Below, in pieces: positions 33,842 to 45,860 of a stretch of 64,000 nucleotides of DNA; within the stretch, counting starts at the first letter, position 1, and the number at the start of each line of letters is the position of its first letter. Source of the stretch: Catenuloplanes niger (GTDB lineage: Bacteria > Actinomycetota > Actinomycetes > Mycobacteriales > Micromonosporaceae); contig NZ_JAVDYC010000001.1 in assembly GCF_031458255.1 (NCBI RefSeq), positions 1,497,001 through 1,561,000 on the forward strand, in the 5' to 3' direction. The notes below the pieces were generated by a model. The model saw nothing but the letters and a program-made list of their open reading frames with translations, was not told the DNA's origin and made no database searches. A program made the position numbers and the translations under genes.

Positions 33842-36427
33842 ATGATCGGCTCAAGCCGGCGCAGACCTCAGGCGACCGACCGCCTGCTGCTGAAACTCGC
33901 CCTTCTGACCCTCGGCCCGGCCGCCGTCTGGCTCTTCCTGCTGCTCTTCTCCGCCTCCCCCGCCCAGGCCGCACCGGGCTCCGGCACCGGACCGCCGATC
34001 ACGGTGGGTGACGCGGCGGCGGAGGTAACGGACATCGTGACGACCCTGCCGCCCGTCACGCCCGCGACGGCACCGGCCGGCGAGACCACCCGGGAACAGC
34101 ACCACGCCGGCGGCGAGACAACCGCGGCGGCGGTGCCGAACGGGAAGCGGGCAGCGTCCGAGCCGGCACCGGCCGCGAAGGTGACCGCGCCGGTCACAGA
34201 AGTGCCCATCCCCGCCACGAAAGAAGCTGCCCCGGTCACGGAAGAGGCCGCGCCGGACACGGAGCCGGCTCCGCCCGCCGCAGAACAGGACGCCCCAGCC
34301 ACGGAAGAGGCTGCGCCCGCCGCGGAACAGGCTGTACCGGCCGCGGAACAGGCCGCCCCGGTCGTGGATGTGGTCGAGACGACCACGGAGGTGGCTGAAA
34401 CGGCCACAGAGGTGGCCGCATCCGCCGGGAACGCGGCTGACATGGCCGGCGCGGCCACGGACGTGAGCGCACCGGTTACGAACGCAGCAAGCACAGCCAC
34501 AACCAGCACCGCCTCGGACGTGACCGCACCCGTCACGAATGCAGGCAGCACAACCACGACCAGCGCGGCCATGGATGTGGGCGCACCCGTCACGAACGCG
34601 GCAAGCACAGCCACGAACAACGCCGCCACGGACGCGACCGCACCCGTCACGAAGACAGCCCGCGCGGCCACGACCAGCGCGGTCACGGCCGCGGATGCAC
34701 CCGTACCTGTCACGAATGCAGCCGGCAGAGCCGCGGGCGCGACCACCGCGCGTCCTGACTCGGCCGGCGCCGCCTCGGGCGCGTCCGCACCGGCTCCGGA
34801 CGTGGCCGGCGACGTGGTCGGCGACACGCTCACGTCCACGATCGAGGCCGTCGGCACGCCGCTGACCGGTACCGCGGGTGACGCGGTGGTCGGGTCCGCC
34901 GCCGAGCCGGTCGCATCGCTGATCGCCACGACGGACGACGTCGTGATCACGCCCGTCGCCGAACCACTCACACCGCCGATCACCACGACGGCTCGCAGCC
35001 TGGTCGCACCCGTCACCGAAGCCGTCCGGGCGCCGGTCGATCCGGTGGTGACGGTCGTGGCGGAGCCGCTCCTCGCGGCCACCGGACGTCACGTGACACC
35101 CGCGAGCGGCACGGCCACGGCACCGGCCGGTGCGGTACTCGAACAGCCGATGGCGACGCCCGCGGTCAACGCGATCACGGCAGGGACCGACGCGGCGCTC
35201 AGCCTGACCGAGGCGACACCCGCAACCACCGCGGCCACGGCAGCAGCCGACGCGGCACTCGGACAGCGAGTAACCACGCCCGCGACCACCGCGATCACGA
35301 CAGCAGCCGACGCGGCACTCGGACAACCGGCGGCCACGCCCGCAACCATCACGACAGCGGCCGACGCGGCGCTCGGACGACGAGTAACCACGCCCGTGAT
35401 CGGCGCGGTTGCGGCGGCGGTCGGGGTGGTGCCTGCGCATCCGGTGGCGCGGTCCGCGACCGGCGTGGTCACGGCCGTGGGCGGTGTGGCGTCGGTGCGG
35501 CCGGCGGTGGTGCCGGCCGGGGATGTGCTCGCGGCCGTTCTCCCGCCGGTTGCCGGGACTGTCGCCGTGCCGCCGGTGAGGTCCGTGATCGCGCCGGCGG
35601 CCGAGCCGGTGGTCATGGCCCTGCGGGGCACGACCCACCTGATCTCCGGCGTCGCCGCGCGCACGATCGTGTGGACCGGCGCCGTCGTGGCGGCGACGGT
35701 GACGCCGGTCGCCCAGGCGGTCGCAACACCGGTCGGGCTGGCCGCCGTCGCCACGGTCGCGACCGTGCGGGCGGCCACGCACGCGTCGGCCCACACCGTC
35801 GCCCGGGCCGTGACCACGGTCCGCGCCGCATACGCGGCCCAAGCCGCATACGCCGCCCAGGCAGCCCAAGCCGCATACGCCGCCCAGGCCGCATACGCCG
35901 CCCAGGCCGCATACCTGGCCGAGGCCGCGCACGCGGCCCGAGCCGGTTTGACAGCCCACGCCGCGACGCCGCCCGCGCCCGGAACCCCGGCCGGCACGGC
36001 ACCGCACGACACCGCGTCGCGCCACGCGCCCGGCCCGGGCCGGGCCTGGTCGCCGGACCCGGGCCGCCGGTGGTGGCCGGCGATGGAGCCGCGTCGCCCG
36101 GCCCCGGTACGCGGTGCGCAGACCGCGGCCCGCCCGTCCTGCGCTCCCGCCGCGCCGATCGGGTCGGCGGGGGCGGTGGCGGTGGCGGGCCGCGCCGTAC
36201 CGTCGCCGGATGGTTCCGGTGGGGGTGAAGGCCCGGTGGGGCCGCCGACCGGTGGTGCGGTGCCGGGATCGGCCCACGGTCTGCGCGGCGGGGATCAGCC
36301 GGGTTCGCCGCTGGCGGACGCGGCGGCCGGCCCGGCCGCGCTGGACACCCGCGCGGAGTTCGCGCCCCGCCCGGCCGACCAGCACCGTGACTCACGGGTG
36401 ATCGAGGTTCCCGACTCACCTGGGTGA
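33842..36427 (+). CDS. Ala/Thr/Pro-rich low-complexity exported protein, 861 aa
   Basis: The N-terminus has a basic start and a hydrophobic segment (residues about 20-44, LLKLALLTLGPAAVWLFLLLFSASPAQAA), a signal peptide or anchor. The rest is low complexity: acidic AAP/AAEQ repeats (about 100-175), repeated APVTNAAST units (about 200-300), a Val/Ala/Pro region with A-AADAALGQR repeats (about 435-530), a 6-residue AAYAAQ helical repeat (about 662-695) and a Pro/Gly/Arg-rich tail. No catalytic domain is seen. A surface or spore-coat-like role is an inference from composition and from its place beside two response regulators and the SapB-like operon. ATG 33842 has GGGAGACGG upstream. Codon use fits the genome. 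Confidence 0.72.
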   Translation: MIGSSRRRPQATDRLLLKLALLTLGPAAVWLFLLLFSASPAQAAPGSGTGPPITVGDAAAEVTDIVTTLPPVTPATAPAGETTREQHHAGGETTAAAVPNGKRAASEPAPAAKVTAPVTEVPIPATKEAAPVTEEAAPDTEPAPPAAEQDAPATEEAAPAAEQAVPAAEQAAPVVDVVETTTEVAETATEVAASAGNAADMAGAATDVSAPVTNAASTATTSTASDVTAPVTNAGSTTTTSAAMDVGAPVTNAASTATNNAATDATAPVTKTARAATTSAVTAADAPVPVTNAAGRAAGATTARPDSAGAASGASAPAPDVAGDVVGDTLTSTIEAVGTPLTGTAGDAVVGSAAEPVASLIATTDDVVITPVAEPLTPPITTTARSLVAPVTEAVRAPVDPVVTVVAEPLLAATGRHVTPASGTATAPAGAVLEQPMATPAVNAITAGTDAALSLTEATPATTAATAAADAALGQRVTTPATTAITTAADAALGQPAATPATITTAADAALGRRVTTPVIGAVAAAVGVVPAHPVARSATGVVTAVGGVASVRPAVVPAGDVLAAVLPPVAGTVAVPPVRSVIAPAAEPVVMALRGTTHLISGVAARTIVWTGAVVAATVTPVAQAVATPVGLAAVATVATVRAATHASAHTVARAVTTVRAAYAAQAAYAAQAAQAAYAAQAAYAAQAAYLAEAAHAARAGLTAHAATPPAPGTPAGTAPHDTASRHAPGPGRAWSPDPGRRWWPAMEPRRPAPVRGAQTAARPSCAPAAPIGSAGAVAVAGRAVPSPDGSGGGEGPVGPPTGGAVPGSAHGLRGGDQPGSPLADAAAGPAALDTRAEFAPRPADQHRDSRVIEVPDSPG
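35827..35912. repeat. 18-base repeats coding AAYAAQ units
   Basis: Units of GCATACGCCGCCCAGGCC and close variants are repeated about five times, giving a regular Ala/Tyr/Gln helix. Confidence 0.8.
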
Positions 36428-36443
36428 TCGTTCCCAACCGGTT

Positions 36444-36464
36444 CCGGCCCTGGTCAAGGGCCGG
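36444..36464 (+). terminator. Terminator hairpin after the low-complexity gene
   Basis: CCGGCCCT pairs with AGGGCCGG around GGTCA, 17 bases after the stop codon and 71 bases before the next start. Confidence 0.55.
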
Positions 36465-36534
36465 TGATCGGTCTCGCCTGACGGACTTTCGACGCCGGCG
36501 CACGTCGCCGGTGAGGCGTGATGGGAGCGAACCG

Positions 36535-37134
36535 ATGATTCGCACAATGATCTTCTCGAACCATGTGCTGCTGCGCGAGTCCCTGCACGCGGTGCTGTCC
36601 ACGGAGCTGGAGGTGACGTCCGTGGGTGGTGACGACGGCGAGGTGCTGACGGCGGCACACAAGATCAGGCCGGAAGTGATCGTGGTGGATCTGGACGGGC
36701 CGGGGCGGCAGGGGCTGCGGACCGTGCGGCTGCTGGTGGCGGAGCTGCCGGAGTGTGCGGTGGTGGCGCTGACCGGGCGGCACACGCCGCATGCGCTGCG
36801 GGCCGCGCTGACCGCGGGCGCGCGCGGGTTCGCGTCGCGGGAGCAGCCGCCGGCCGAGCTGGTGGATCTGATCCGGCGGGTCGGGCGCGGCGAGCGGATG
36901 ATTCATCCGGGTACCGCGCTGGCGACGCTCGCCGCGATGCACAATCCACTGTCCGCGCGGGAGCGGGACGTGCTGCGTCTCGCGGCGCGTGGGATGCCCG
37001 GTGCGGCGATTGCGTCCGAACTTTTTCTGTCCGAAGGAACAATTCGGAACTATCTATCTTCAGCGGTACGGAAACTGAACTGCAGAAATCGGTTGGAAGC
37101 GGCCCGTCTCGCCGAGGAGGCCGGTTGGATCTGA
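36535..37134 (+). CDS. NarL/LuxR-family response regulator 1
   Basis: The 199-residue protein has a receiver-like domain (1-120: MIRTMIFSNHVLLRESLHAVL, phosphoacceptor-like Asp in VIVVDLDGP, VVALTGRHT, RAALTAGARGF) and a LuxR-type helix-turn-helix (LSARERDVLRLAARGMPGAAIASELFLSEGTIRNYLSSAVRKLNCRNRLEAARLAEEAGWI), like DesR/RamR-type actinomycete regulators. The stretch coding for the helix-turn-helix (about 37010-37110) is much richer in A and T and uses codons such as CTA, ACA, AGA and TCA that are rare elsewhere here. ATG 36535 follows GGGAGCG. A perfect hairpin follows. It may control the convergent lanthipeptide operon. Confidence 0.9.
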   Translation: MIRTMIFSNHVLLRESLHAVLSTELEVTSVGGDDGEVLTAAHKIRPEVIVVDLDGPGRQGLRTVRLLVAELPECAVVALTGRHTPHALRAALTAGARGFASREQPPAELVDLIRRVGRGERMIHPGTALATLAAMHNPLSARERDVLRLAARGMPGAAIASELFLSEGTIRNYLSSAVRKLNCRNRLEAARLAEEAGWI

Positions 37135-37323: not shown

Positions 37324-37938
37324 GTGGTGCGCATTCTGCTGGCGATGCCGCAGGGGCTGCTGCGTGGCGCGCTGAGATACGTGCTGTCCACGCATCCGGA
37401 CATGGACGTGGTCGCGGAGCGCGACGCGGTCGACGCCACGATCGAGGCGGTGCGGTCCGACCCGCCGGACGTGACGGTGCTCGACCTCGAGCTGCTCAAC
37501 GGGCCGGGGCAGGACCCGGCCGGCGTGGCCCGCGCCGCGCACTCGGAGCTGCCGGACAGCAAGATCCTGGTGTTGGTCGACCCGCGCCGGCCCGGCGTCG
37601 CCTCGCAGATCGCCACGGTCTCGCCGACGATCGGGTTCCTGGCGCAGACCGCGTCGCCGGAGCGGATGGTGGACGCGGTGCGCCGGCTGGCCGCGGGTGA
37701 GCCGGTGGTGGACGCGGACCTGCTGGTCGCGGCGCTGACGCCGACGTCGCCGCTGACCGACCGGGAGCTGCGCGTGCTGGAGGTGGCCGCGCTCGGCACG
37801 CCGGTGAAGGACATCGCGCGCACGCTGTCGCTGTCACCGGGTACGGTGCGCAACCACCTGTCCCGGATCATCGCGAAGACCGGCGCCCGCAACCGGATCG
37901 AGGCCATCCACCTGGCCAAGGAGAAGGGCTGGATCTGA
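37324..37938 (+). CDS. NarL/LuxR-family response regulator 2 (RamR-like position)
   Basis: The 204-residue protein resembles regulator 1: receiver (VVRILLAMPQGLLRGALRYVLSTHPDMDVVAERD, phosphoacceptor-like Asp in VTVLDLELL, KILVLVDPRRPG) and LuxR helix-turn-helix (LTDRELRVLEVAALGTPVKDIARTLSLSPGTVRNHLSRIIAKTGARNRIEAIHLAKEKGWI). GTG 37324 is used because AAGGGG lies 6 bases upstream; GTG 37327 is the alternative. In Streptomyces the ram/amf lanthipeptide operon is switched on by RamR, a regulator of this type coded next to it, so the same role is likely here. Its last 105 bases are overlapped by the convergent ABC transporter gene. Confidence 0.9.
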   Translation: MVRILLAMPQGLLRGALRYVLSTHPDMDVVAERDAVDATIEAVRSDPPDVTVLDLELLNGPGQDPAGVARAAHSELPDSKILVLVDPRRPGVASQIATVSPTIGFLAQTASPERMVDAVRRLAAGEPVVDADLLVAALTPTSPLTDRELRVLEVAALGTPVKDIARTLSLSPGTVRNHLSRIIAKTGARNRIEAIHLAKEKGWI

Positions 37939-39540
37939 CATCTCGCGGTACGCGGCGGACGTGCGCAGCAGTTCCGTGTGCGTGCTGAGCAGCGGTGCGG
38001 CGCCGTCGAAGAGCAGCACGTGCCGGCCGCGCGCGGCGGAGGCGAGCCGGTGTGCGATCACCACGAGCGCACCCGGCCGGGCCGCGAACGCGGCCTCCGC
38101 ACGGGCCTCCGCGACCGGGTCGAGGTGGCAGGTCGCCTCGTCCAGGATGGCCAGCGGCGCGGGTGACAGCCACGCCCGGACGAGTGCGATCAGCTGCTTC
38201 TCGCCGGCCGAGAGGGTGGCCGGGTCGATCAGGCCGTCCAGTCCGCCGAGCCGGTCGATCAGCGGCCAGGCGCCGAGCGCGGCGATCCCGCGCAGCACCG
38301 GCGCGTCCGGGGCCAGGTAGCGCAGGTTCTCCAGCACGGTGCCGGTGAAGACGTACGCCTCCTGCGGCAGCAGCACGCGGTCGGCGCAGCGCACGTCACC
38401 CTGCTGCGGCGCGATCAGGCCGGCCATCAGCGCGGCCAGGGTGGACTTGCCGATGCCGCTCGCGCCCACGATGACGAGGTGCTCGCCCGGGTCGACGTCC
38501 AGGTCGAAGCGGTCGAGCACGGGCGCGGCGGCCGGGCCGTACCGGAACGTGACGCCACGCATGCGCAGCAGGCCGCGGTCCGGGGCCGGGGCCGGCTGCG
38601 ACTGCGGCGCGGGCCGCTCCAGGATGCGGCGCAGCGTGACGCCGTAGCGCAGGCCGCCCTGGGCGAGGCCGTGCATCAGCAGGTGCAGCGCGGGCACCAG
38701 CGCCTGCCGCACGTAGACCATGGCGCCGAGCAGCACACCGGCGCCGATCCCGCGGCCGGTCAGCCAGGGCGCGGCGGTCAGCAGCACGATCAGCGGTCCC
38801 CAGCCGCCGACCGCGAGGCAGGCGCCGCGGAGTGCCCCGGCCGTGCCGAGCGCACGCTCCGCCCGGGACTGGGCGTCGACCGCGTCCGCGACCACCCCGG
38901 TCGCCCAGTCGCCGGCACCGGCCGCGGTCACGTCCCGGTGCGCGCGCAGCATCGGCTCCGCGGTCGCGGCCAGGTCCTCGTCCGCACGCACATAGGACAG
39001 TTGGCGCCGCGCCAGGCGCGGCAGGAGCAGCGCGAACAACCCCAGACCGAGCAGCAGCGGTACGGCGACCAGCCCGGCCAGCACCGGCGCCAGCGCGAGG
39101 AGACCGGCGATCGCGGCGGCCAGGCTGAACACGAAGCCGCGCACGGTGGTGAGCAGCCCGGCGAGCGTGTCCCGGACCACCTCCACCTGACGGGTCAGCT
39201 TGGCCACGGCCGCGCGGTCCGGCCGGGCCGCGCCGCGCAGCGCGTCGGTCACCACCCGGCGCACCAGCCGGTCCCGGAACGGTTCGACCACGTCCCCGAG
39301 CCGGCGGTACGCGACCCGTGCGCCGGCCGCGCCCACGCACGCGGCCAGCCCGTAGCCGCCGAGCCAGGCCAGCCCGGTGCCGACGTCACCGGCGAGGAAG
39401 CCGTCGTCGATCGCGCGCGCGGTGGCGTATCCGCTGATCAGCGCGGGCGCGGTCTCGGCCAGCGACGCGACGGCCAGGCCGGCGACGGCACGCCGGTCCC
39501 GCCAGAGCTCCTGCCGCGTGTAGCGGGTGGCCGCGCCCAT
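37834..39540 (-). CDS. Lanthipeptide-operon ABC transporter, second half (RamB/AmfB-like)
   Basis: The 568-residue half-transporter has an N-terminal six-helix membrane domain (about 1-300) and an ATPase domain (about 330-545): Walker A VGASGIGKST, Q-loop LPQEAYVF, signature LSAGEKQ in place of LSGGQ, Walker B LAILDEATCHLD with the catalytic Glu, and switch His in IAHRLAS. With its partner it should export the modified SapB-like peptide. Its start overlaps the partner's stop by one base (TGATG). The last 34 residues after AAYREMSD come from reading into the antisense of response regulator 2, so the native stop has probably been lost. Confidence 0.9.
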   Translation of the reverse strand: MGAATRYTRQELWRDRRAVAGLAVASLAETAPALISGYATARAIDDGFLAGDVGTGLAWLGGYGLAACVGAAGARVAYRRLGDVVEPFRDRLVRRVVTDALRGAARPDRAAVAKLTRQVEVVRDTLAGLLTTVRGFVFSLAAAIAGLLALAPVLAGLVAVPLLLGLGLFALLLPRLARRQLSYVRADEDLAATAEPMLRAHRDVTAAGAGDWATGVVADAVDAQSRAERALGTAGALRGACLAVGGWGPLIVLLTAAPWLTGRGIGAGVLLGAMVYVRQALVPALHLLMHGLAQGGLRYGVTLRRILERPAPQSQPAPAPDRGLLRMRGVTFRYGPAAAPVLDRFDLDVDPGEHLVIVGASGIGKSTLAALMAGLIAPQQGDVRCADRVLLPQEAYVFTGTVLENLRYLAPDAPVLRGIAALGAWPLIDRLGGLDGLIDPATLSAGEKQLIALVRAWLSPAPLAILDEATCHLDPVAEARAEAAFAARPGALVVIAHRLASAARGRHVLLFDGAAPLLSTHTELLRTSAAYREMSDPALLLGQVDGLDPVAGAGLRDDPGQVVAHRTR

Positions 39541-41357
39541 CAGCCGGCACCGCGCCCACCGCCGGCGACGGGCCGCGACCCGGTCCGCACCCCGTGCCGG
39601 CCCGGCCGGGCGGCCGGCGGCGTCTCGCCGGACGTGCGCGGTGCCGCCACCGGGGACGCACCGGCGAAGACCGCGCGGTAGGCCGGGTCGGCCCAGAGCA
39701 CCCGGTGCGGGGCGAACGCGCGCAGCCGGCCGCCGTCGAGCCAGGCGACCAGGTCGGCGCGGGCGGCGGTGGCCCGGCGGTGGGTGACCAGCAGCCGGGT
39801 GACGCCGTGCGCGTGCCGGGTCAGGGCCGCGCCGATCCGCGCCTCGGTCACGCTGTCCACACTGGACGACGCGTCGTCCAGCACCAGCAGCCGGGCGCCG
39901 TGCAGCGCGCGGGCCAGGCCGAGCCGCTGCGCCTCGCCGCCGGACATCGGCGCGTCCGCCAGCGGCGTGTCGTACCCGCGGGGAAGCCGCCGGACGTAGT
40001 CGTCGATGGCGGCGACGCGGGCGGCCTCGGCGACGAAGCCGGGGTCGCGGCCCATCGCGATCGCGTCGCCGATCGTGCGGCCGGCCAGCGCCGGCCGCTC
40101 GAAGCCGTAGCCGACCGCGACCGCGAGCGCGTCCCGGGACAGCGCGGGCAGCGGCACGCCGTCGAGCCGGACCGTGCCCTCGTCCGGGTCGCGCAGCCGC
40201 CCGGCGACCGCGGCGAACGTGGACTTGCCGGCCCCGGACCGGCCGACCACCGCGACCACGGCGCCGCCGGGCACGGCCAGCGTGAGCCGGTCCAGCAGCA
40301 CCCGCCCGTCCTCGGCCCGGACCGTGACGCCCTCGAGACGCAGCTCCCCCACTCCATGATCAACGTGTCCGGCGGGCCGGATCGGGGACGTCCCGGTGCG
40401 GGCCGGGGGCAGGTGACGGGCGCCGTGCGGGCGGGGGCGCTCAGTGATGATCTCGGCGGCGCGGGTGGCGCCGCTGCGCGCGCGGACCAGGCGGTTGAGC
40501 GTGCCCAGGATCGCGCCGAGGCCGGCGCCGAGGGCCGCGTACTGCAGCGCCGCGATCAGCTCGCCGGGCGTGAGCCGGCCGGCGGTGAGCAGCACGCCGG
40601 CGACCGCGACCACGACGATCTGGGTGAGCGGCCCGAGCACCGCGGTCCGGCCGGCCGCGACCGCGAGCGCGGACCACGTACCCCGGCCGTGTTTCCCCAG
40701 CTCGGGCAGGGGCCGCAGGACGCGGCGGATCTCGGTCTCCGCGGTACCGGCCGCCGCGATCGTGCGTGCGCCGGTCATCGCCTCGGCGAGCAGCGCCGCG
40801 ATGTCGCCCTGCACGCGCTGGTAGCCGCGGGCGAACGTGGACGCGCTGAGCACGAATCCGCGCAGCAGCGCGGTGAGCAGCAGCAACCCGGCGACGAGCG
40901 CGACCGCGAGCCACGGGTCGATCAGCGCGAGCGCGACCAGGCTGCCGATCGGTGGCAGCACGGAGACGAGACCGCCGATGGTGGCGCCGACCGCGGACCC
41001 GGCGTCCGCGGCCTGGGTGCCGAGCCGCGCGACCAGGTCACCGGCCGGGCGGCCGATCGGGTGCGGGAGCGTGAAGATCCGGCTGAGCAGCGCGCGGCGC
41101 AGGTGCGCGGTGGCGCGGGCGGTGCCGGTGGCGGCGGCGAGGTCGGTGAGCACGTCCGCGACCGCGGCGACGACGACCAGCGCGGCCGTGATGCCGATCC
41201 AGGCGTGCGCGGAGCCGGCGAACACCGCGTCGACCGTGCGGCCGATCGCGGCGGGGACGAGCAGCGCCGCGACCGCGCCGATGATCGACGCGACCGCCAG
41301 CAGGACCGCGTGACCGCCGGCCGCGCGCACGCAGCCGAGCAGGATGCGGTTCGTCAT
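39540..41357 (-). CDS. Lanthipeptide-operon ABC transporter, first half (RamA/AmfA-like)
   Basis: The 605-residue half-transporter has six membrane helices (about 10-310) and an ATPase (about 340-560): Walker A VGRSGAGKSTF, signature MSGGEAQRLGLARAL, Walker B LLVLDDASSSVD and switch His in VTHRRAT. The residue after the Walker B Asp is Asp, not the usual catalytic Glu. Together with the weak signature of the second half, this points to a heterodimer with one weak ATP site. A Pro/Arg/Gly-rich tail (about 575-605) follows. The gene starts 81 bases after the precursor gene, past a perfect hairpin. In Streptomyces, RamAB is thought to export SapB. Confidence 0.9.
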   Translation of the reverse strand: MTNRILLGCVRAAGGHAVLLAVASIIGAVAALLVPAAIGRTVDAVFAGSAHAWIGITAALVVVAAVADVLTDLAAATGTARATAHLRRALLSRIFTLPHPIGRPAGDLVARLGTQAADAGSAVGATIGGLVSVLPPIGSLVALALIDPWLAVALVAGLLLLTALLRGFVLSASTFARGYQRVQGDIAALLAEAMTGARTIAAAGTAETEIRRVLRPLPELGKHGRGTWSALAVAAGRTAVLGPLTQIVVVAVAGVLLTAGRLTPGELIAALQYAALGAGLGAILGTLNRLVRARSGATRAAEIITERPRPHGARHLPPARTGTSPIRPAGHVDHGVGELRLEGVTVRAEDGRVLLDRLTLAVPGGAVVAVVGRSGAGKSTFAAVAGRLRDPDEGTVRLDGVPLPALSRDALAVAVGYGFERPALAGRTIGDAIAMGRDPGFVAEAARVAAIDDYVRRLPRGYDTPLADAPMSGGEAQRLGLARALHGARLLVLDDASSSVDSVTEARIGAALTRHAHGVTRLLVTHRRATAARADLVAWLDGGRLRAFAPHRVLWADPAYRAVFAGASPVAAPRTSGETPPAARPGRHGVRTGSRPVAGGGRGAG

Positions 41358-41378
41358 GACGCCCCCAGATATGGGCCC

Positions 41379-41402
41379 GCCCCGGCGCATGCGCGCCGGG
41401 GC
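41379..41402 (-). terminator. Attenuator-like hairpin between precursor and transporter genes
   Basis: GCCCCGGCGC and GCGCCGGGGC form a perfect 10-base-pair stem with a 4-base loop, 37 bases after the precursor stop and 22 bases before the transporter start. A leaky terminator here would give more precursor message than transporter message, a common feature of lantibiotic operons. Confidence 0.65.
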
Positions 41403-41438: not shown

Positions 41439-41564
41439 TCAGTTGCAGGTGGTGACGCTCAGCGAGCTGTCGCCGCAGAGCAGCAGGCTGGCCTGGCTCC
41501 CGCCGCCCCCGCCGCCGCCGGTCGCGTCCTCGATGTCCATGCCCTGGAGGTCGAGCAGCGTCAT
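41439..41564 (-). CDS. SapB/AmfS-like class III lanthipeptide precursor, 41 aa
   Basis: The peptide is MTLLDLQGMDIEDAT, seven glycines, then SQASLLLCGDSSLSVTTCN. The core is nearly the same as that of Streptomyces SapB (RamS), with two S-xx-S-xxx-C units: Ser23/Ser26/Cys30 and Ser33/Ser36/Cys40. LanKC would phosphorylate and dehydrate the Ser residues and close labionin or lanthionine rings. The leader has the class III LLDLQ motif that binds the enzyme. The seven-glycine linker between leader and core is unusual. Mature SapB lowers surface tension so hyphae can grow into the air; the same role is inferred. ATG 41564 has AGAAGG 9 bases upstream; upstream TTG and GTG codons are in frame. Confidence 0.9.
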   Translation of the reverse strand: MTLLDLQGMDIEDATGGGGGGGSQASLLLCGDSSLSVTTCN

Positions 41565-41634
41565 GCTCAACACCTTCTCTCTCTGTCGTTCTGACGGGTG
41601 ACTGTTCTTTTCTTTCTTCCGCGCGCCGGAAGTC

Positions 41635-44190
41635 TCATGCCGGTGCTCCGGCGGGTACGGCCGTGCGTGGCGCGGGCGCGACGGCGGTGGTCGGTGCGAG
41701 CAGCGGCAGCGCGGTGCGCTCCGGATCGCGGGCCATGGTCAGCGCGAGCAGCACGCCCGCGGACCCGGTGGCCAGGTCGGTGGAGAGCCGCAGCAGCTGC
41801 TCCCCGGGGAAGGCCAGATGCTCGCCGTACGGCAACGCGTGCCAGGCCAGCGCACCGGCCTGCCGGGCCAGCGCGGGTGCGTCCGCGACGATGCCGGCGG
41901 CGACCCGTGCGGCGAGGTAGGCGACGATCCCGGCGCGGCCGGCGAACAGGCCGGACTGCGCGTAGAACGGGGATCGGGCGGCCAGGCGGATCGCGGCGGA
42001 CGCGTCCCGGAAGGCCTCGTCGTCCGGCCGGTACCGCAGGTAGCGGTCGAGCCCGATGCCGATGCCGACGCTGCCGTGCGCGAGGTACGGCATGGTCCGC
42101 CACCCCTCGTTCACGTGCATCGTGCCGTCGTCGGTGAGCACGCAGGTGTGCAGGTCACGGCGGAGCGCGCGGGCGGCCAGGTCGAGCAGGGCCGGGTCGC
42201 GTGTGGTCTCGTACCGGTGCAGGAAGAACAGGGCGGGGCCGGTCCAGCCGCGCGTCAGGCCCGCGTAGGGGTGCGCGCGCCCGCTGGTCTCCGCGGGTGG
42301 CGGCGCCGCGTCGAGCCGGTCCGCGAGCAGCTGCAACACCTCGTCCGCGCGGTCCCGCACGCCGAACCGGTCCAGGCTCAGACCCACCCCGGCGAGGCCG
42401 CTGACCAGGTCATGGTTGAGTTCGCGCCACGGCTCGGCCAGGCAGATGTCCAGCAGGGACCGTGCGTCGCCGGTACGGCCGAGCGCGTCCAGCGCGAACG
42501 CGACGCCGTGCAGCCCGTCCCACAGGCCGAGGCGGCTGCCGGACGGCGGCGGCGCGACCCGGTCGGCCAGCCACTGCTCGTGCTCGGGGAACCGGCCGGC
42601 GCCGCAGGTGTGCAGCGTCCACAGCACGCCGGCCGCGCCGTACCCGAGGCTCAGCCCGCCGCTGCGGAACTGCTCGATGTCGCCCGGGAACAGCCGGTCG
42701 TCGCGGGCCGGCGTGGCGGTGGCCAGGATGCCGGTGGCGATCCGGTCGCGGTCCAGCGTGACCGGCCGGGCCGGTGCCGCGTCCGCGCCACGGATGGTCC
42801 GCACCGCGTCGTCCAGATAGGAGTCCGGCACGTCCGGGAACCGGGACCTGATGATCGTGGCGAAGTGCGCGGCCTTCTCCGGCGCCAGCCGCAGCACCGC
42901 GGTGAGCGGCAGGAACAACGCGAGTCGCAGGCAGGCCAGCGCGTACTCGTCGACCGCGAACCCGGTCCGGTCACGCGGCGCCGCGAACGCCTGGTTGCGC
43001 AGCGCGGGCCGGGCGTCCTCGGTGCCGTCCCGGGCCGCCTCGAAGTCGAGCAGCGTGATCCGGTCGTCCGGGCACACCATCACGTTGAACAGGTGCAGGT
43101 CGCCGTAGACCACGCCGCGCCGGTGGATCTCGCGGAGCACGCGGTCCACCTGGGCGTGCACGTCCAGCGCCCAGCTGGTGAACGCGCGCAGGTCGTCGTC
43201 GGTCACGTCCGGCCGGGTGAGCGGGTAACGCCGGACCAGCGCCTTGTTGAGCGGCTCGCCCTCGATCAGGTCCAGGGCGAGGAAGTAGTGGTCGCCGAGG
43301 CGGAACTCGTCGTGCACCCGGGCGAGCTGCGGCACGTCCGCGAGCCGGCGGAGCATGTCGCGCTCCCGGCGCAGGCGGGTGACCGCGTCCGCGCCGGTGG
43401 CGTCCAGCCCGGCGTGCGGGCGCGCCTCCTTCAGCACGACGCTGTCGCCGGTGCGGGTGTCCCGGCCGGTGTAGAGCCCACCGCCGTTGGAGAAGTGCAA
43501 CACCTTCTCGATCGCGTACGGTACGGCGGCGACCTTCGCGGCGCCGCGCGCTTCGAGGTGCGGGCGGAGGAACGCGGGCAGTTCGACCCAGGCCGGAACC
43601 TTGAAGACCGGTTCGCGGCGGTCCGGGACGAGCGTGCCGGTGGCGTCCTCGATCGCGGGGACGACCTTGCCGGACTCGTCGAGGCAGTAGCGGGCCGCGA
43701 ATCCGCCGTAGCGGACGTAGACCGGGCCCTCGCCGTAGCGCAGGTCGGAGAGGATGTACGGCCCCTCCCGGCCGGCCAGCAGCGCGCTCAGGTCCGCGCA
43801 GACCGCCTCGAGCTCGGTCTCGTCGTGCGGGTAGACGGTGACGAACTTGCCGCTGCTGCCCCGGCCGGCGTACTTGCTGTTGCGCATGAGCAGCATCTGC
43901 GGGCCGCGCAGGAACTTGAACCCGATCCCCCGGGCGGTGCAGTAGTCCCAGACGAGTGCGAGCACCTCGGCCGCGTCCTCACGGCGTGCGGAGATGTGCA
44001 CCTTCCAACCCTGTGCCGGCAGCCGGTCGCCATCCGGCCCGACCACGGTCCAGTCGTCCTGCGCGGCGCGCTTCCAGCCGGCCGGGAGAACCAGCTCCTC
44101 GCCGTACTCGACGGTCCGGGCCTTGGTGTTGGTGAGGGCGTCGTAGAAGAGCGGATCGACAGCGCAGTAGGAGTCGTATCGCTCGTCCAT
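41635..44190 (-). CDS. Class III lanthipeptide synthetase LanKC (RamC/AmfT-like)
   Basis: The 851-residue enzyme has three parts. The N-terminal lyase domain covers about 1-215 (KVHISARREDAAEVLALVWDYC, FKFLRGPQMLLMRNSKYAGRGSSGKFVTVYP). The kinase domain covers about 220-500, with Lys254 in VVLKEARP, the catalytic loop YGDLHLFNVM (Asp364, Asn369) and metal Asp382 in LLDFEAARD. The LanC-like cyclase domain covers about 520-851 (SGGLSLGYGAAGVLWTLHTCG, GLWDGLHGVAFALDALG, TRGWTGPALFFLHRYE, GLFAGRAGIVAYLAAR). Class III cyclases lack the zinc ligands, and I see none here. It phosphorylates and eliminates Ser residues of the precursor and helps close rings. The precursor gene lies 70 bases downstream, and transporter genes follow. 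ATG 44190 is preceded by GAGGGGGCAG. Confidence 0.95.
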   Translation of the reverse strand: MDERYDSYCAVDPLFYDALTNTKARTVEYGEELVLPAGWKRAAQDDWTVVGPDGDRLPAQGWKVHISARREDAAEVLALVWDYCTARGIGFKFLRGPQMLLMRNSKYAGRGSSGKFVTVYPHDETELEAVCADLSALLAGREGPYILSDLRYGEGPVYVRYGGFAARYCLDESGKVVPAIEDATGTLVPDRREPVFKVPAWVELPAFLRPHLEARGAAKVAAVPYAIEKVLHFSNGGGLYTGRDTRTGDSVVLKEARPHAGLDATGADAVTRLRRERDMLRRLADVPQLARVHDEFRLGDHYFLALDLIEGEPLNKALVRRYPLTRPDVTDDDLRAFTSWALDVHAQVDRVLREIHRRGVVYGDLHLFNVMVCPDDRITLLDFEAARDGTEDARPALRNQAFAAPRDRTGFAVDEYALACLRLALFLPLTAVLRLAPEKAAHFATIIRSRFPDVPDSYLDDAVRTIRGADAAPARPVTLDRDRIATGILATATPARDDRLFPGDIEQFRSGGLSLGYGAAGVLWTLHTCGAGRFPEHEQWLADRVAPPPSGSRLGLWDGLHGVAFALDALGRTGDARSLLDICLAEPWRELNHDLVSGLAGVGLSLDRFGVRDRADEVLQLLADRLDAAPPPAETSGRAHPYAGLTRGWTGPALFFLHRYETTRDPALLDLAARALRRDLHTCVLTDDGTMHVNEGWRTMPYLAHGSVGIGIGLDRYLRYRPDDEAFRDASAAIRLAARSPFYAQSGLFAGRAGIVAYLAARVAAGIVADAPALARQAGALAWHALPYGEHLAFPGEQLLRLSTDLATGSAGVLLALTMARDPERTALPLLAPTTAVAPAPRTAVPAGAPA

Positions 44191-44426
44191 CTCTGCCCCC
44201 TCTCGGCCGTTCGGCTGTTGACATGGACCAGAGTGGCCTATCGACAGGGGTCTCCTGAAGTGCTGCGCGTCATGCGATGCACGCCTGATCTGCACCGGAA
44301 GTCATGACAAAACGCTGGTTTAAGCCGCCCCGTCCTGGCTATGGGCGCGCGAGCACCGGAGCGGCTTCTTGTCGTACCCGTTGGATAGGTTCCCGGGGAC
44401 TTCGCTTCCGACGAAAGGTCTCCCCG

Positions 44427-45860
44427 ATGCCGGCCGACACCACATACCTCGAGCTCTCCGAGGACTCCGGCAGTGCGCACAAGTTCTACGAGGTGACCGT
44501 CGACGGCACCGACCTGACCATCCGCTATGGACGCATCGGCGACCACGGGCAGGTGAAGCGGTCGTCGTTCCCGACCACGGACAAGGCGAGGTCCGAGGCC
44601 GCCAAGAAGATCGGGGAGAAGGTCCGGAAGGGGTACGCGCCGGCCGTCGCCGGCGGCCGGCAGAAGCGCTCGGTCACCCGCCGCCAGATCGTCAGCACCC
44701 GCTCCACCGCGAAGGCCGCGCCGATCCTCTGGCGTTACTCGTCGGGCAGCGCCGCGTTCGGCATCTTCGTCGACGACGACGTGTGCATGGTGGGCAACGA
44801 GAGCGGCATGATCACCACGCTCGGCCACGACGCCTCGGTGCAGCGCCAGTTCCGCCTGCCGGACGGCGTGAAGTGCATCGTGGCCGACGACGGCTGGATC
44901 TACGCGGGCTGCGACGACGGCAACGTCTACGACCTCTCCGGCAAGATCCCCCGCCTGGCGTACGCGATCGATCCCGGCATCGACATCTACTGGCTGGACA
45001 TCCACGACGGCGTGCTCGGCGTCTCCGACGCGCGCGGCGGCATCTCCGCCATCGACCACGAGGACGAGTTCCTCTGGCAGCGTCCCGGCCGCGGCACCTC
45101 CGCCTGGATGGTCCGCTGCGACGCCGACGCCCTGCACCACGGCCACTCCGCGGGCGTGACCAGCTACGACTGGCGCACCGGCGCGGAGCTGTGGCACACC
45201 GGCACCGGCGGCCCGGTCCTGTTCGGCTGGCAGGAGCCCGGCAAGCTGTACGCGGGAACCGCCCGCAGCCAGGTCGTCGAGCTCGGCAAGAACGGCACCC
45301 ACCACCGGACGTACCAGTGCGACGCCGCCGTCTTCTCCTGCGCCGCCTCCCCCGACGGCCGCTTCGTCTTCGCCGGTGACAGCGCCTCCTCCGTCTACTG
45401 CTTCGCCGCCGACGGCACCCGCCTGTGGAAGCTCGCCACCGGCTGCGGCTCCGCCTACTCCATGCAGTACCACGACGAGCGCCTCTACATCGTCACCACG
45501 AATGGCACCCTGGCCTGCATCGACGCCAGCGAGACCGCCATCTCGGCCGCGATGGGCGGCAGCGTCCCGCAGCCGGTCGACGTCAAGGTGCCACCGGCCA
45601 TGCCCACGGTCGCCCCGTCCACCACCGTCGAGACCGTCCACGACCTCGCCGACGCCGCCGGCGACGTCGTCGTCGAGTGCGTCGAGGACGCCGGCCGCCT
45701 CCGCATCCGCGTCGTCTCCGCCGGCTACGACCACAACTGGCAGGTCCAGTTCCCCAAGGGCATCCGCGAGCCCGGCGCCCGCTACGTCGTCTCCGGCATC
45801 CGCGAGGCCGCCCGCGGCGGCTTCTACCGCGCCTACGGCGACATCCGCCGCCTCCGCTGA
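44427..45860 (+). CDS. WGR domain fused to a PQQ/WD-like beta-propeller
   Basis: The 477-residue protein starts with a WGR domain (about 5-75: TTYLELSEDSGSAHKFYEVTVDGTDLTIRYGRIGDHGQVKRSSFPTTDKARSEAAKKIGEKVRKGY, with YGRIG in place of WGRIG). A basic linker and a propeller follow (about 95-395; blades such as DDVCMVGNESGMITTLGHD, GWIYAGCDDGNVYDLSG, DGRFVFAGDSASSVYCFAADGTRLW), then a C-terminal domain (about 410-477, VVECVEDAGRLRIRVVSAGYDHNWQVQFPKGIRE). WGR binds nucleic acid ends in PARPs and occurs with MolR-type proteins in bacteria. No enzyme domain is seen, so a sensing or scaffold role is likely. A 16-base-pair terminator follows. Confidence 0.85.
   Translation: MPADTTYLELSEDSGSAHKFYEVTVDGTDLTIRYGRIGDHGQVKRSSFPTTDKARSEAAKKIGEKVRKGYAPAVAGGRQKRSVTRRQIVSTRSTAKAAPILWRYSSGSAAFGIFVDDDVCMVGNESGMITTLGHDASVQRQFRLPDGVKCIVADDGWIYAGCDDGNVYDLSGKIPRLAYAIDPGIDIYWLDIHDGVLGVSDARGGISAIDHEDEFLWQRPGRGTSAWMVRCDADALHHGHSAGVTSYDWRTGAELWHTGTGGPVLFGWQEPGKLYAGTARSQVVELGKNGTHHRTYQCDAAVFSCAASPDGRFVFAGDSASSVYCFAADGTRLWKLATGCGSAYSMQYHDERLYIVTTNGTLACIDASETAISAAMGGSVPQPVDVKVPPAMPTVAPSTTVETVHDLADAAGDVVVECVEDAGRLRIRVVSAGYDHNWQVQFPKGIREPGARYVVSGIREAARGGFYRAYGDIRRLR

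What the first reader, a model, noticed from the sequence alone, without database searches (positions are those of the whole stretch)
41439..41564. SapB-like class III lanthipeptide precursor with a seven-glycine leader-core linker
The 41-residue gene sits between LanKC and two ABC half-transporters, the exact order of ram/amf loci. The core SQASLLLCGDSSLSVTTCN keeps both S-xx-S-xxx-C units of SapB, with only small changes. What is new to me is the run of seven glycines just before the core; known SapB-type leaders do not have such a flexible spacer. It may change where the leader is cut or how far the core reaches into LanKC.
Basis: partly seen in the sequence, partly recalled or inferred. 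Interest (0 to 1): 0.85.

Follow-up and report, generated by a model that had tools for sequence, protein, structure and literature searches.

The report
Ordinary SapB-type peptide gene, glycine-rich hinge
This is a small gene for a known kind of bacterial surface peptide (SapB-like), and the run of seven glycines that looked new turns out to be a common, length-variable feature of the same gene in related bacteria.

Summary
A 41-codon gene on the minus strand (41564-41439) encodes MTLLDLQGMDIEDAT-GGGGGGG-SQASLLLCGDSSLSVTTCN, between a class III LanKC and two ABC half-transporters. It scores far above the curated cut-offs for RamS (PF19402, 65.7 bits) and SapB/AmfS-family lanthipeptide (NF033212, 68.4 bits). 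The SapB-like reading is supported.

The claimed novelty is not. All five genomes held of the genus (taken as Catenuloplanes from a contig match) carry a Gly tract here: 4, 6, 6, 7, 7. Plantactinospora has 7-8 in six of seven genomes read, Actinoplanes-group rows up to 8, Micromonospora mostly 3, some Streptomyces SapB-type leaders 4-5. Of 117 distinct SapB-type precursors read, 94 have at least 3 Gly directly before the core, 23 at least 5, 8 at least 7.

The tract does not lengthen the leader: 15 residues from LDLQ to the first core Ser, against a mean of 15.2. The genome has no C39 double-glycine protease but has two full-length M1 metallopeptidases, the AplP family.

Most likely this is a standard SapB-type morphogen whose free leader-core hinge is glycine-rich. 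Interest is low.

The parts
41439..41564 (-). SapB/RamS-type class III lanthipeptide precursor, 41 aa plus stop; leader 1-22 (LLDLQ at 3-7, Gly 16-22), core 23-41
   Evidence: 5 of 5 congeners
41499..41519 (-). seven glycine codons of the leader-core hinge (residues 16-22)
   Evidence: coordinates by arithmetic from the 41564 start
41635..44190 (-). class III lanthionine synthetase LanKC (RamC-like: lyase, kinase and LanC-like cyclase)
   Evidence: NF038151 1045.3 bits, cut-off 575; RamC_N PF25816 269.9 bits; matches solved LanKC chains such as 8sao_B
39540..41390 (-). ABC half-transporter 1, no peptidase domain found
   Evidence: ABC_membrane and ABC_tran
37834..39540 (-). ABC half-transporter 2, no peptidase domain found
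   Evidence: ABC_tran; kept at this place in the loci except L099
37228..37938 (+). convergent LuxR-type regulator in the RamR/AmfR position; receiver domain below the Pfam cut-off
   Evidence: GerE 56.7 bits; Response_reg 15.5 bits, cut-off 30.2; same place in relatives
36424..37134 (+). second LuxR-type response regulator beside the first
   Evidence: GerE 61.5 bits, Response_reg 40.1 bits; adjacent in 11 of 14 Micromonosporaceae relatives

Best explanation
It is an ordinary SapB/RamS-family class III lanthipeptide precursor of a Catenuloplanes species. The LLDLQ helix of the leader docks on LanKC (inferred from the ThurKC structure). The rest of the leader, including the Gly tract, is a flexible hinge that lets the core visit the kinase, lyase and cyclase sites. 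Four Ser in two S-xx-S-xxx-C units are dehydrated and two rings close (inferred from SapB). The peptide is exported by the two half-transporters. The leader is probably removed by an unclustered M1 (AplP-like) metallopeptidase that cuts and then trims residue by residue, so the product may be a ladder differing in N-terminal Gly. The Gly tract is a length-variable GGN stretch that changed length repeatedly, while the spacer as a whole stays within 12-20 residues. Shown here: family membership, gene order, Gly-tract distribution, spacer length, no C39 hit, two M1 proteases. Inferred: binding, modification, export, cleavage, function.
For: RamS and NF033212 matches. One LanKC over cut-off in the genome. 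Gly tract in 5 of 5 congeners, 4, 6, 6, 7, 7, and in relatives. Same gene order in most of 19 loci compared. Spacer 15 aa against mean 15.19, SD 2.23, n = 114 distinct. State 'five or more Gly' changed at least 9 times on the LanKC FastTree of 88 rows, 6 forced by starred branches. No C39 peptidase hit in the genome, while the search rings in 8 of 14 controls. Two M1 PepN-like proteins at 944.9 and 934.5 bits, cut-off 591.2, with GAMEN and HExxH-18-E. ThurKC: density reported for leader Met-22 to Asp-10, not for the last part (PMC10604976, passages). AplP cuts then trims (PMC10885120, passages).
Against: No chemistry or expression data. The cleavage motifs the review quotes for AplP (E-I/L-L/Q, S-A-S/T) are not present as such; the leader has D-L-Q. 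M1 aminopeptidases of this model ring in 8 of 14 control genomes (1 over cut-off), so their presence is weak evidence. Seven Gly is in the upper tail (8 of 117 have 7 or more), and long tracts are clustered on the tree (0 of 500 shuffles as low), so a functional effect is not excluded.
Confidence: 0.93

Rival explanations
1. The Gly tract is a selected device that sets how far the core reaches into LanKC or where the leader is cut.
For: Runs of 7-8 Gly occur in Catenuloplanes, Plantactinospora and the Actinoplanes group. Across 114 distinct precursors long Gly runs go with a shorter non-Gly spacer (Spearman -0.57; variance of the total 4.96 against 9.89 for the sum of the parts; -0.36 in 46 LQS/LQT rows, -0.68 in 68 LQG/LQA rows).
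Against: Total spacer is average. Congeners range from 4 to 7 Gly with the same core. On independent pairs of the LanKC tree the compensation is not significant: 6 starred pairs; at the best of six thresholds 2.3 go the same way, 0 the other, 3.7 do not differ; at the next threshold 1.0 against 0.6.
Confidence: 0.12
2. The end of the tract is a double-glycine site cut by a C39 peptidase transporter.
For: About one third of lanthipeptide precursors end the leader in GG (PMC7268733, passage); the durhapeptin paper marks G-X as a transporter-protease site (PMC13380574, figure legend).
Against: No peptidase domain found in either half-transporter and no C39 match in the whole genome at E <= 0.001, while the same search rings in 8 of 14 control genomes.
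Confidence: 0.04
3. Pseudogene or chance open frame.
For: Only that the gene is very small.
Against: Same core in 5 of 5 congeners, full coverage of two family models, intact cluster.
Confidence: 0.01

Closest known systems
SapB precursor RamS and the ramCSAB-ramR locus (Streptomyces coelicolor)
   Same: Family model, LDLQ leader motif, two S-xx-S-xxx-C units, LanKC - precursor - ABC - ABC order, adjacent LuxR-type regulator
   Different: Gly tract in place of a mixed linker; Q for R and V for I in the core (RamS letters recalled; RamS-like rows such as L053 read have one Gly)
AmfS-type precursors (amf locus)
   Same: LDLQ leader; AmfS-type rows L052, L055, L059 and L062 have GGGG before the core (that they are AmfS-type is by resemblance recalled)
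   Different: Different core (STVSLLSCVSAASVLLCL type)
SapB-type precursors of Plantactinospora, the Actinoplanes group and Micromonospora
   Same: Same core type with a Gly tract, mostly 3 to 8, before it
   Different: Several Micromonospora loci carry two or three tandem precursors; the window has one
ThurKC/ThurA1, Bacillus thuringiensis class III system
   Same: Leader helix bound by LanKC; end of the leader not resolved (PMC10604976, passages)
   Different: Firmicutes system with its own two-component protease

Membership tests
SapB/RamS-family class III lanthipeptide | Match over the curated cut-off of RamS PF19402 or NF033212 | tested here: met
   65.7 bits against 24.3; 68.4 against 25
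SapB/RamS-family class III lanthipeptide | Two S-xx-S-xxx-C units in the core | tested here: met
   S23-S26-C30 and S33-S36-C40, read
SapB/RamS-family class III lanthipeptide | LxLQ leader motif | tested here: met
   LLDLQ at 3-7
SapB/RamS-family class III lanthipeptide | Adjacent class III synthetase LanKC | tested here: met
   NF038151 1045.3 bits
ram/amf-type locus | LanKC - precursor - ABC - ABC with adjacent LuxR-type regulator | tested here: met
   arrangement of the known loci from passages of PMC13380574
SapB | Four dehydrations, two rings, surface activity, aerial growth phenotype | not testable with these tools
   needs mass spectrometry and genetics
C39 double-glycine leader | C39 peptidase domain in the exporter or genome | tested here: not met
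AplP-type (M1) leader processing | Full-length M1 metallopeptidase in the genome | tested here: met
   two over cut-off, motifs; common in controls too (8 of 14 ring, 1 over cut-off)
AplP-type (M1) leader processing | Cleaves this leader | not testable with these tools
   quoted cleavage motifs are not present as such

The most novel reading that the evidence does not exclude
The SapB-type leader hinge is under selection for length rather than sequence: a slippage-prone Gly-codon tract buffers losses elsewhere in the hinge. In Catenuloplanes the trimming aminopeptidase leaves part of the tract on the product, so the secreted morphogen is a ladder of Gly-extended SapB forms.
Probability: 0.2. 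Interest if true: 0.35.

Novelty: new member of a known kind. Interest (0 to 1): 0.1.

Why it matters
It adds little that is new. It shows that a SapB-type locus with a nearly invariant core is widespread in Micromonosporaceae, and that the residues just before the core vary from no Gly to eight Gly. That is useful for leader engineering and for choosing masses to look for in extracts.

Tried and rejected
C39 double-glycine cleavage: rejected, no such peptidase found in the genome. Extra reach of the core: rejected, spacer average. Pure GGC microsatellite: not supported. Tract codons over precursors with runs of four or more are GGC 141, GGT 41, GGG 12, GGA 9, against GGC 198, GGG 51, GGT 23, GGA 11 in five window genes, so GGC is no more frequent than in those genes (69% against 70%); slippage is inferred from length differences only. 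Length compensation: clear across rows but not significant on independent pairs, six thresholds tried. Papers: string search for core letters, 0 papers; Catenuloplanes with lanthipeptide, 5 papers with one mention of the genus each, listing only. I met no paper that discusses a poly-Gly hinge in SapB-type leaders in searches, of which I opened passages of five papers. The original SapB and AmfS papers are not held.

Full report
What is there. The interval 41439-41564 holds, on the minus strand, a 41-codon gene MTLLDLQGMDIEDATGGGGGGGSQASLLLCGDSSLSVTTCN. A GAAGG-type ribosome site precedes the ATG (AGAGAGAGAAGGTGTTGAGC); the alternative GTG at 41573 overlaps it. The gene scores 65.7 bits to RamS PF19402 (cut-off 24.3) and 68.4 bits to the SapB/AmfS model NF033212 (cut-off 25). 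Upstream is LanKC (1045.3 bits to NF038151), the only one over that model's cut-off in the genome. Downstream are two ABC half-transporters in which no peptidase domain was found, then two LuxR-type regulators on the other strand.

Where it comes from. The window is bases 1497001-1561000 of a 9.74 Mb single-contig genome. The genus search covered five genomes, the own one included. Contig 9 of congener G003 has 543678 bases, as has the contig of Catenuloplanes japonicus NRRL B-16061 that holds the same precursor (L124). The genus is therefore taken as Catenuloplanes, an inference. In the same way g34 is taken as Plantactinospora (G331 contig 93 and L140, 19244 bases), g4 as the Actinoplanes group (G077 and L152, 365109 bases) and g23 as Micromonospora (G264 and L129, 714350 bases). 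Group f21/g70 is taken as Streptomyces because its members G707 and G525 fall among named Streptomyces rows of the LanKC tree.

Is the glycine run new? No. All 5 of 5 congeneric genomes have a Gly tract before an identical core: 7 (window), 7, 6, 6 and 4. In the family, PF19402 rings in 151 of 354 genomes. I fetched the precursor loci of 63 of those 151 and read 62 in full; for one (L075) my start rule kept only a fragment. Plantactinospora has 7 or 8 Gly in six of seven genomes read; the seventh (L074) has a Gly/Cys-rich stretch without a long run. Actinoplanes-group rows reach 7 and 8 (L071, L070). Micromonospora rows have mostly 3 (L105 has one). In the class-wide draw PF19402 rings in 48 of 394 genomes, of which 30 loci were fetched, the own one included. 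Streptomyces-group rows include GGGGG (L038, L041) and AmfS-type rows GGGG (L052, L055, L059, L062), while RamS-like rows have a single Gly (L046, L049, L053). A row with another core has ten (L064). Among 80 named loci (the best 80 of 191 relatives), 98 SapB-type precursors carry 1 Gly (11), 2 (3), 3 (71), 4 (3), 5 (7), 6 (1) and 7 (2) directly before the core. Over all loci fetched by then, 117 distinct SapB-type precursors gave 0 (2), 1 (14), 2 (7), 3 (63), 4 (8), 5 (12), 6 (3), 7 (4), 8 (4). That pattern demands a SapB-type core, so AmfS-type precursors are left out. Seven is in the upper tail but is not unique.

Does it change the reach of the core? Counting from the end of LQ to the core Ser, the window has 15 residues; a count of 114 distinct precursors with a stricter start rule gives mean 15.19, SD 2.23, range 12-20. 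The run replaces other linker residues rather than adding length. Across rows, Gly run and non-Gly spacer are negatively correlated (Spearman -0.57), which would fit selection on length, but the rows are related, and on independent pairs of the LanKC tree the effect is not significant. That tree (FastTree) used 88 rows: 90 LanKC with at least 700 query positions matched in one open frame, in loci over 5 kb that hold a SapB-type precursor, less two identical sequences; loci such as L093, whose LanKC matches in two pieces, fell out. Each row bears the longest tract of its locus. The tree needs 9 changes between five or more and fewer than five, 6 of them forced by starred branches. This is also fewer than in any of 500 shuffles (mean 14.2), so tract length changes repeatedly but is still inherited by lineage.

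How it probably works. In ThurKC density is reported for leader residues Met-22 to Asp-10, said to be all but the last ten, with a helix from Met-22 to Lys-14 (PMC10604976, passages). By analogy LLDLQ docks and the Gly tract lies in the free hinge. The LanKC here keeps a DFE kinase motif (LLDFE) in the alignment to a solved LanKC-like chain. For leader removal, the genome has no C39 peptidase match at E <= 0.001 but two M1 metallopeptidases over the PepN cut-off with GAMEN and HExxH-18-E motifs. [quoted passage not shown] AplP-like enzymes are not universal: one failed on a Firmicutes precursor (PMC8960859, passages). A Gly ladder is the form of heterogeneity to expect if such trimming applies. 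Function as a surface-active morphogen is inferred from SapB and AmfS. The genome also encodes two proteins with chaplin-domain matches just over the cut-off (23.8 and 23.2 bits against 21).

Gene order in relatives. In 19 loci, LanKC - precursor(s) - T1 - T2 with a convergent LuxR gene close by holds in all but three: L099 has no transporter match beside the precursor, and in L093 and L094 the regulators lie 3.1-3.6 kb away. The fit to the ram/amf arrangement is good; that arrangement is described in PMC13380574 (passages), which also says that NCBI lists more than 4,000 SapB/AmfS-family sequences.

Verdict. The one feature called new is common in its genus and family.

Noticed in passing
window 37834-37938: The second ABC transporter gene and the convergent LuxR regulator overlap tail to tail by 105 bases. 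The overlap is 71-171 bases in 13 of 16 Micromonosporaceae loci compared (window included; 8 bases in L095, no regulator within 1.5 kb in L093 and L094), while six Streptomyces or f21 loci have a gap of 13-101 bases.
   Followed up: partly
window 36424-37134: A second LuxR-type response regulator sits beside the RamR-position one in 11 of 14 Micromonosporaceae relatives (not adjacent in L101 and L123, locus ends in L096), and was not matched beside it in the five Streptomyces or f21 loci.
   Followed up: partly
genome G000:C1, L207:3123-4775 minus strand (about 8.488-8.490 Mb): A LanC-like open frame (PF05147, 76.8 bits) with weak LanKC-model pieces in and next to it: a divergent or decayed lanthionine-synthetase-like gene outside the window.
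   Followed up: partly
L208 and L209 (genome about 4.363 Mb and 6.051 Mb): Two proteins with chaplin-domain matches just over the cut-off, one with chaplin-like repeats and one with a single domain and an LPVTG motif near its end, in a genome with a SapB-type locus.
   Followed up: partly
L100, L101, L123 and other loci: Micromonospora and some Actinoplanes-group loci carry two or three tandem SapB-type precursors with slightly different leaders and last residues.
   Followed up: no
window 44304-45860: A WGR-domain protein with beta-propeller-like matches lies divergently next to LanKC; matched there in all four congeners and not in the other 15 loci.
   Followed up: no
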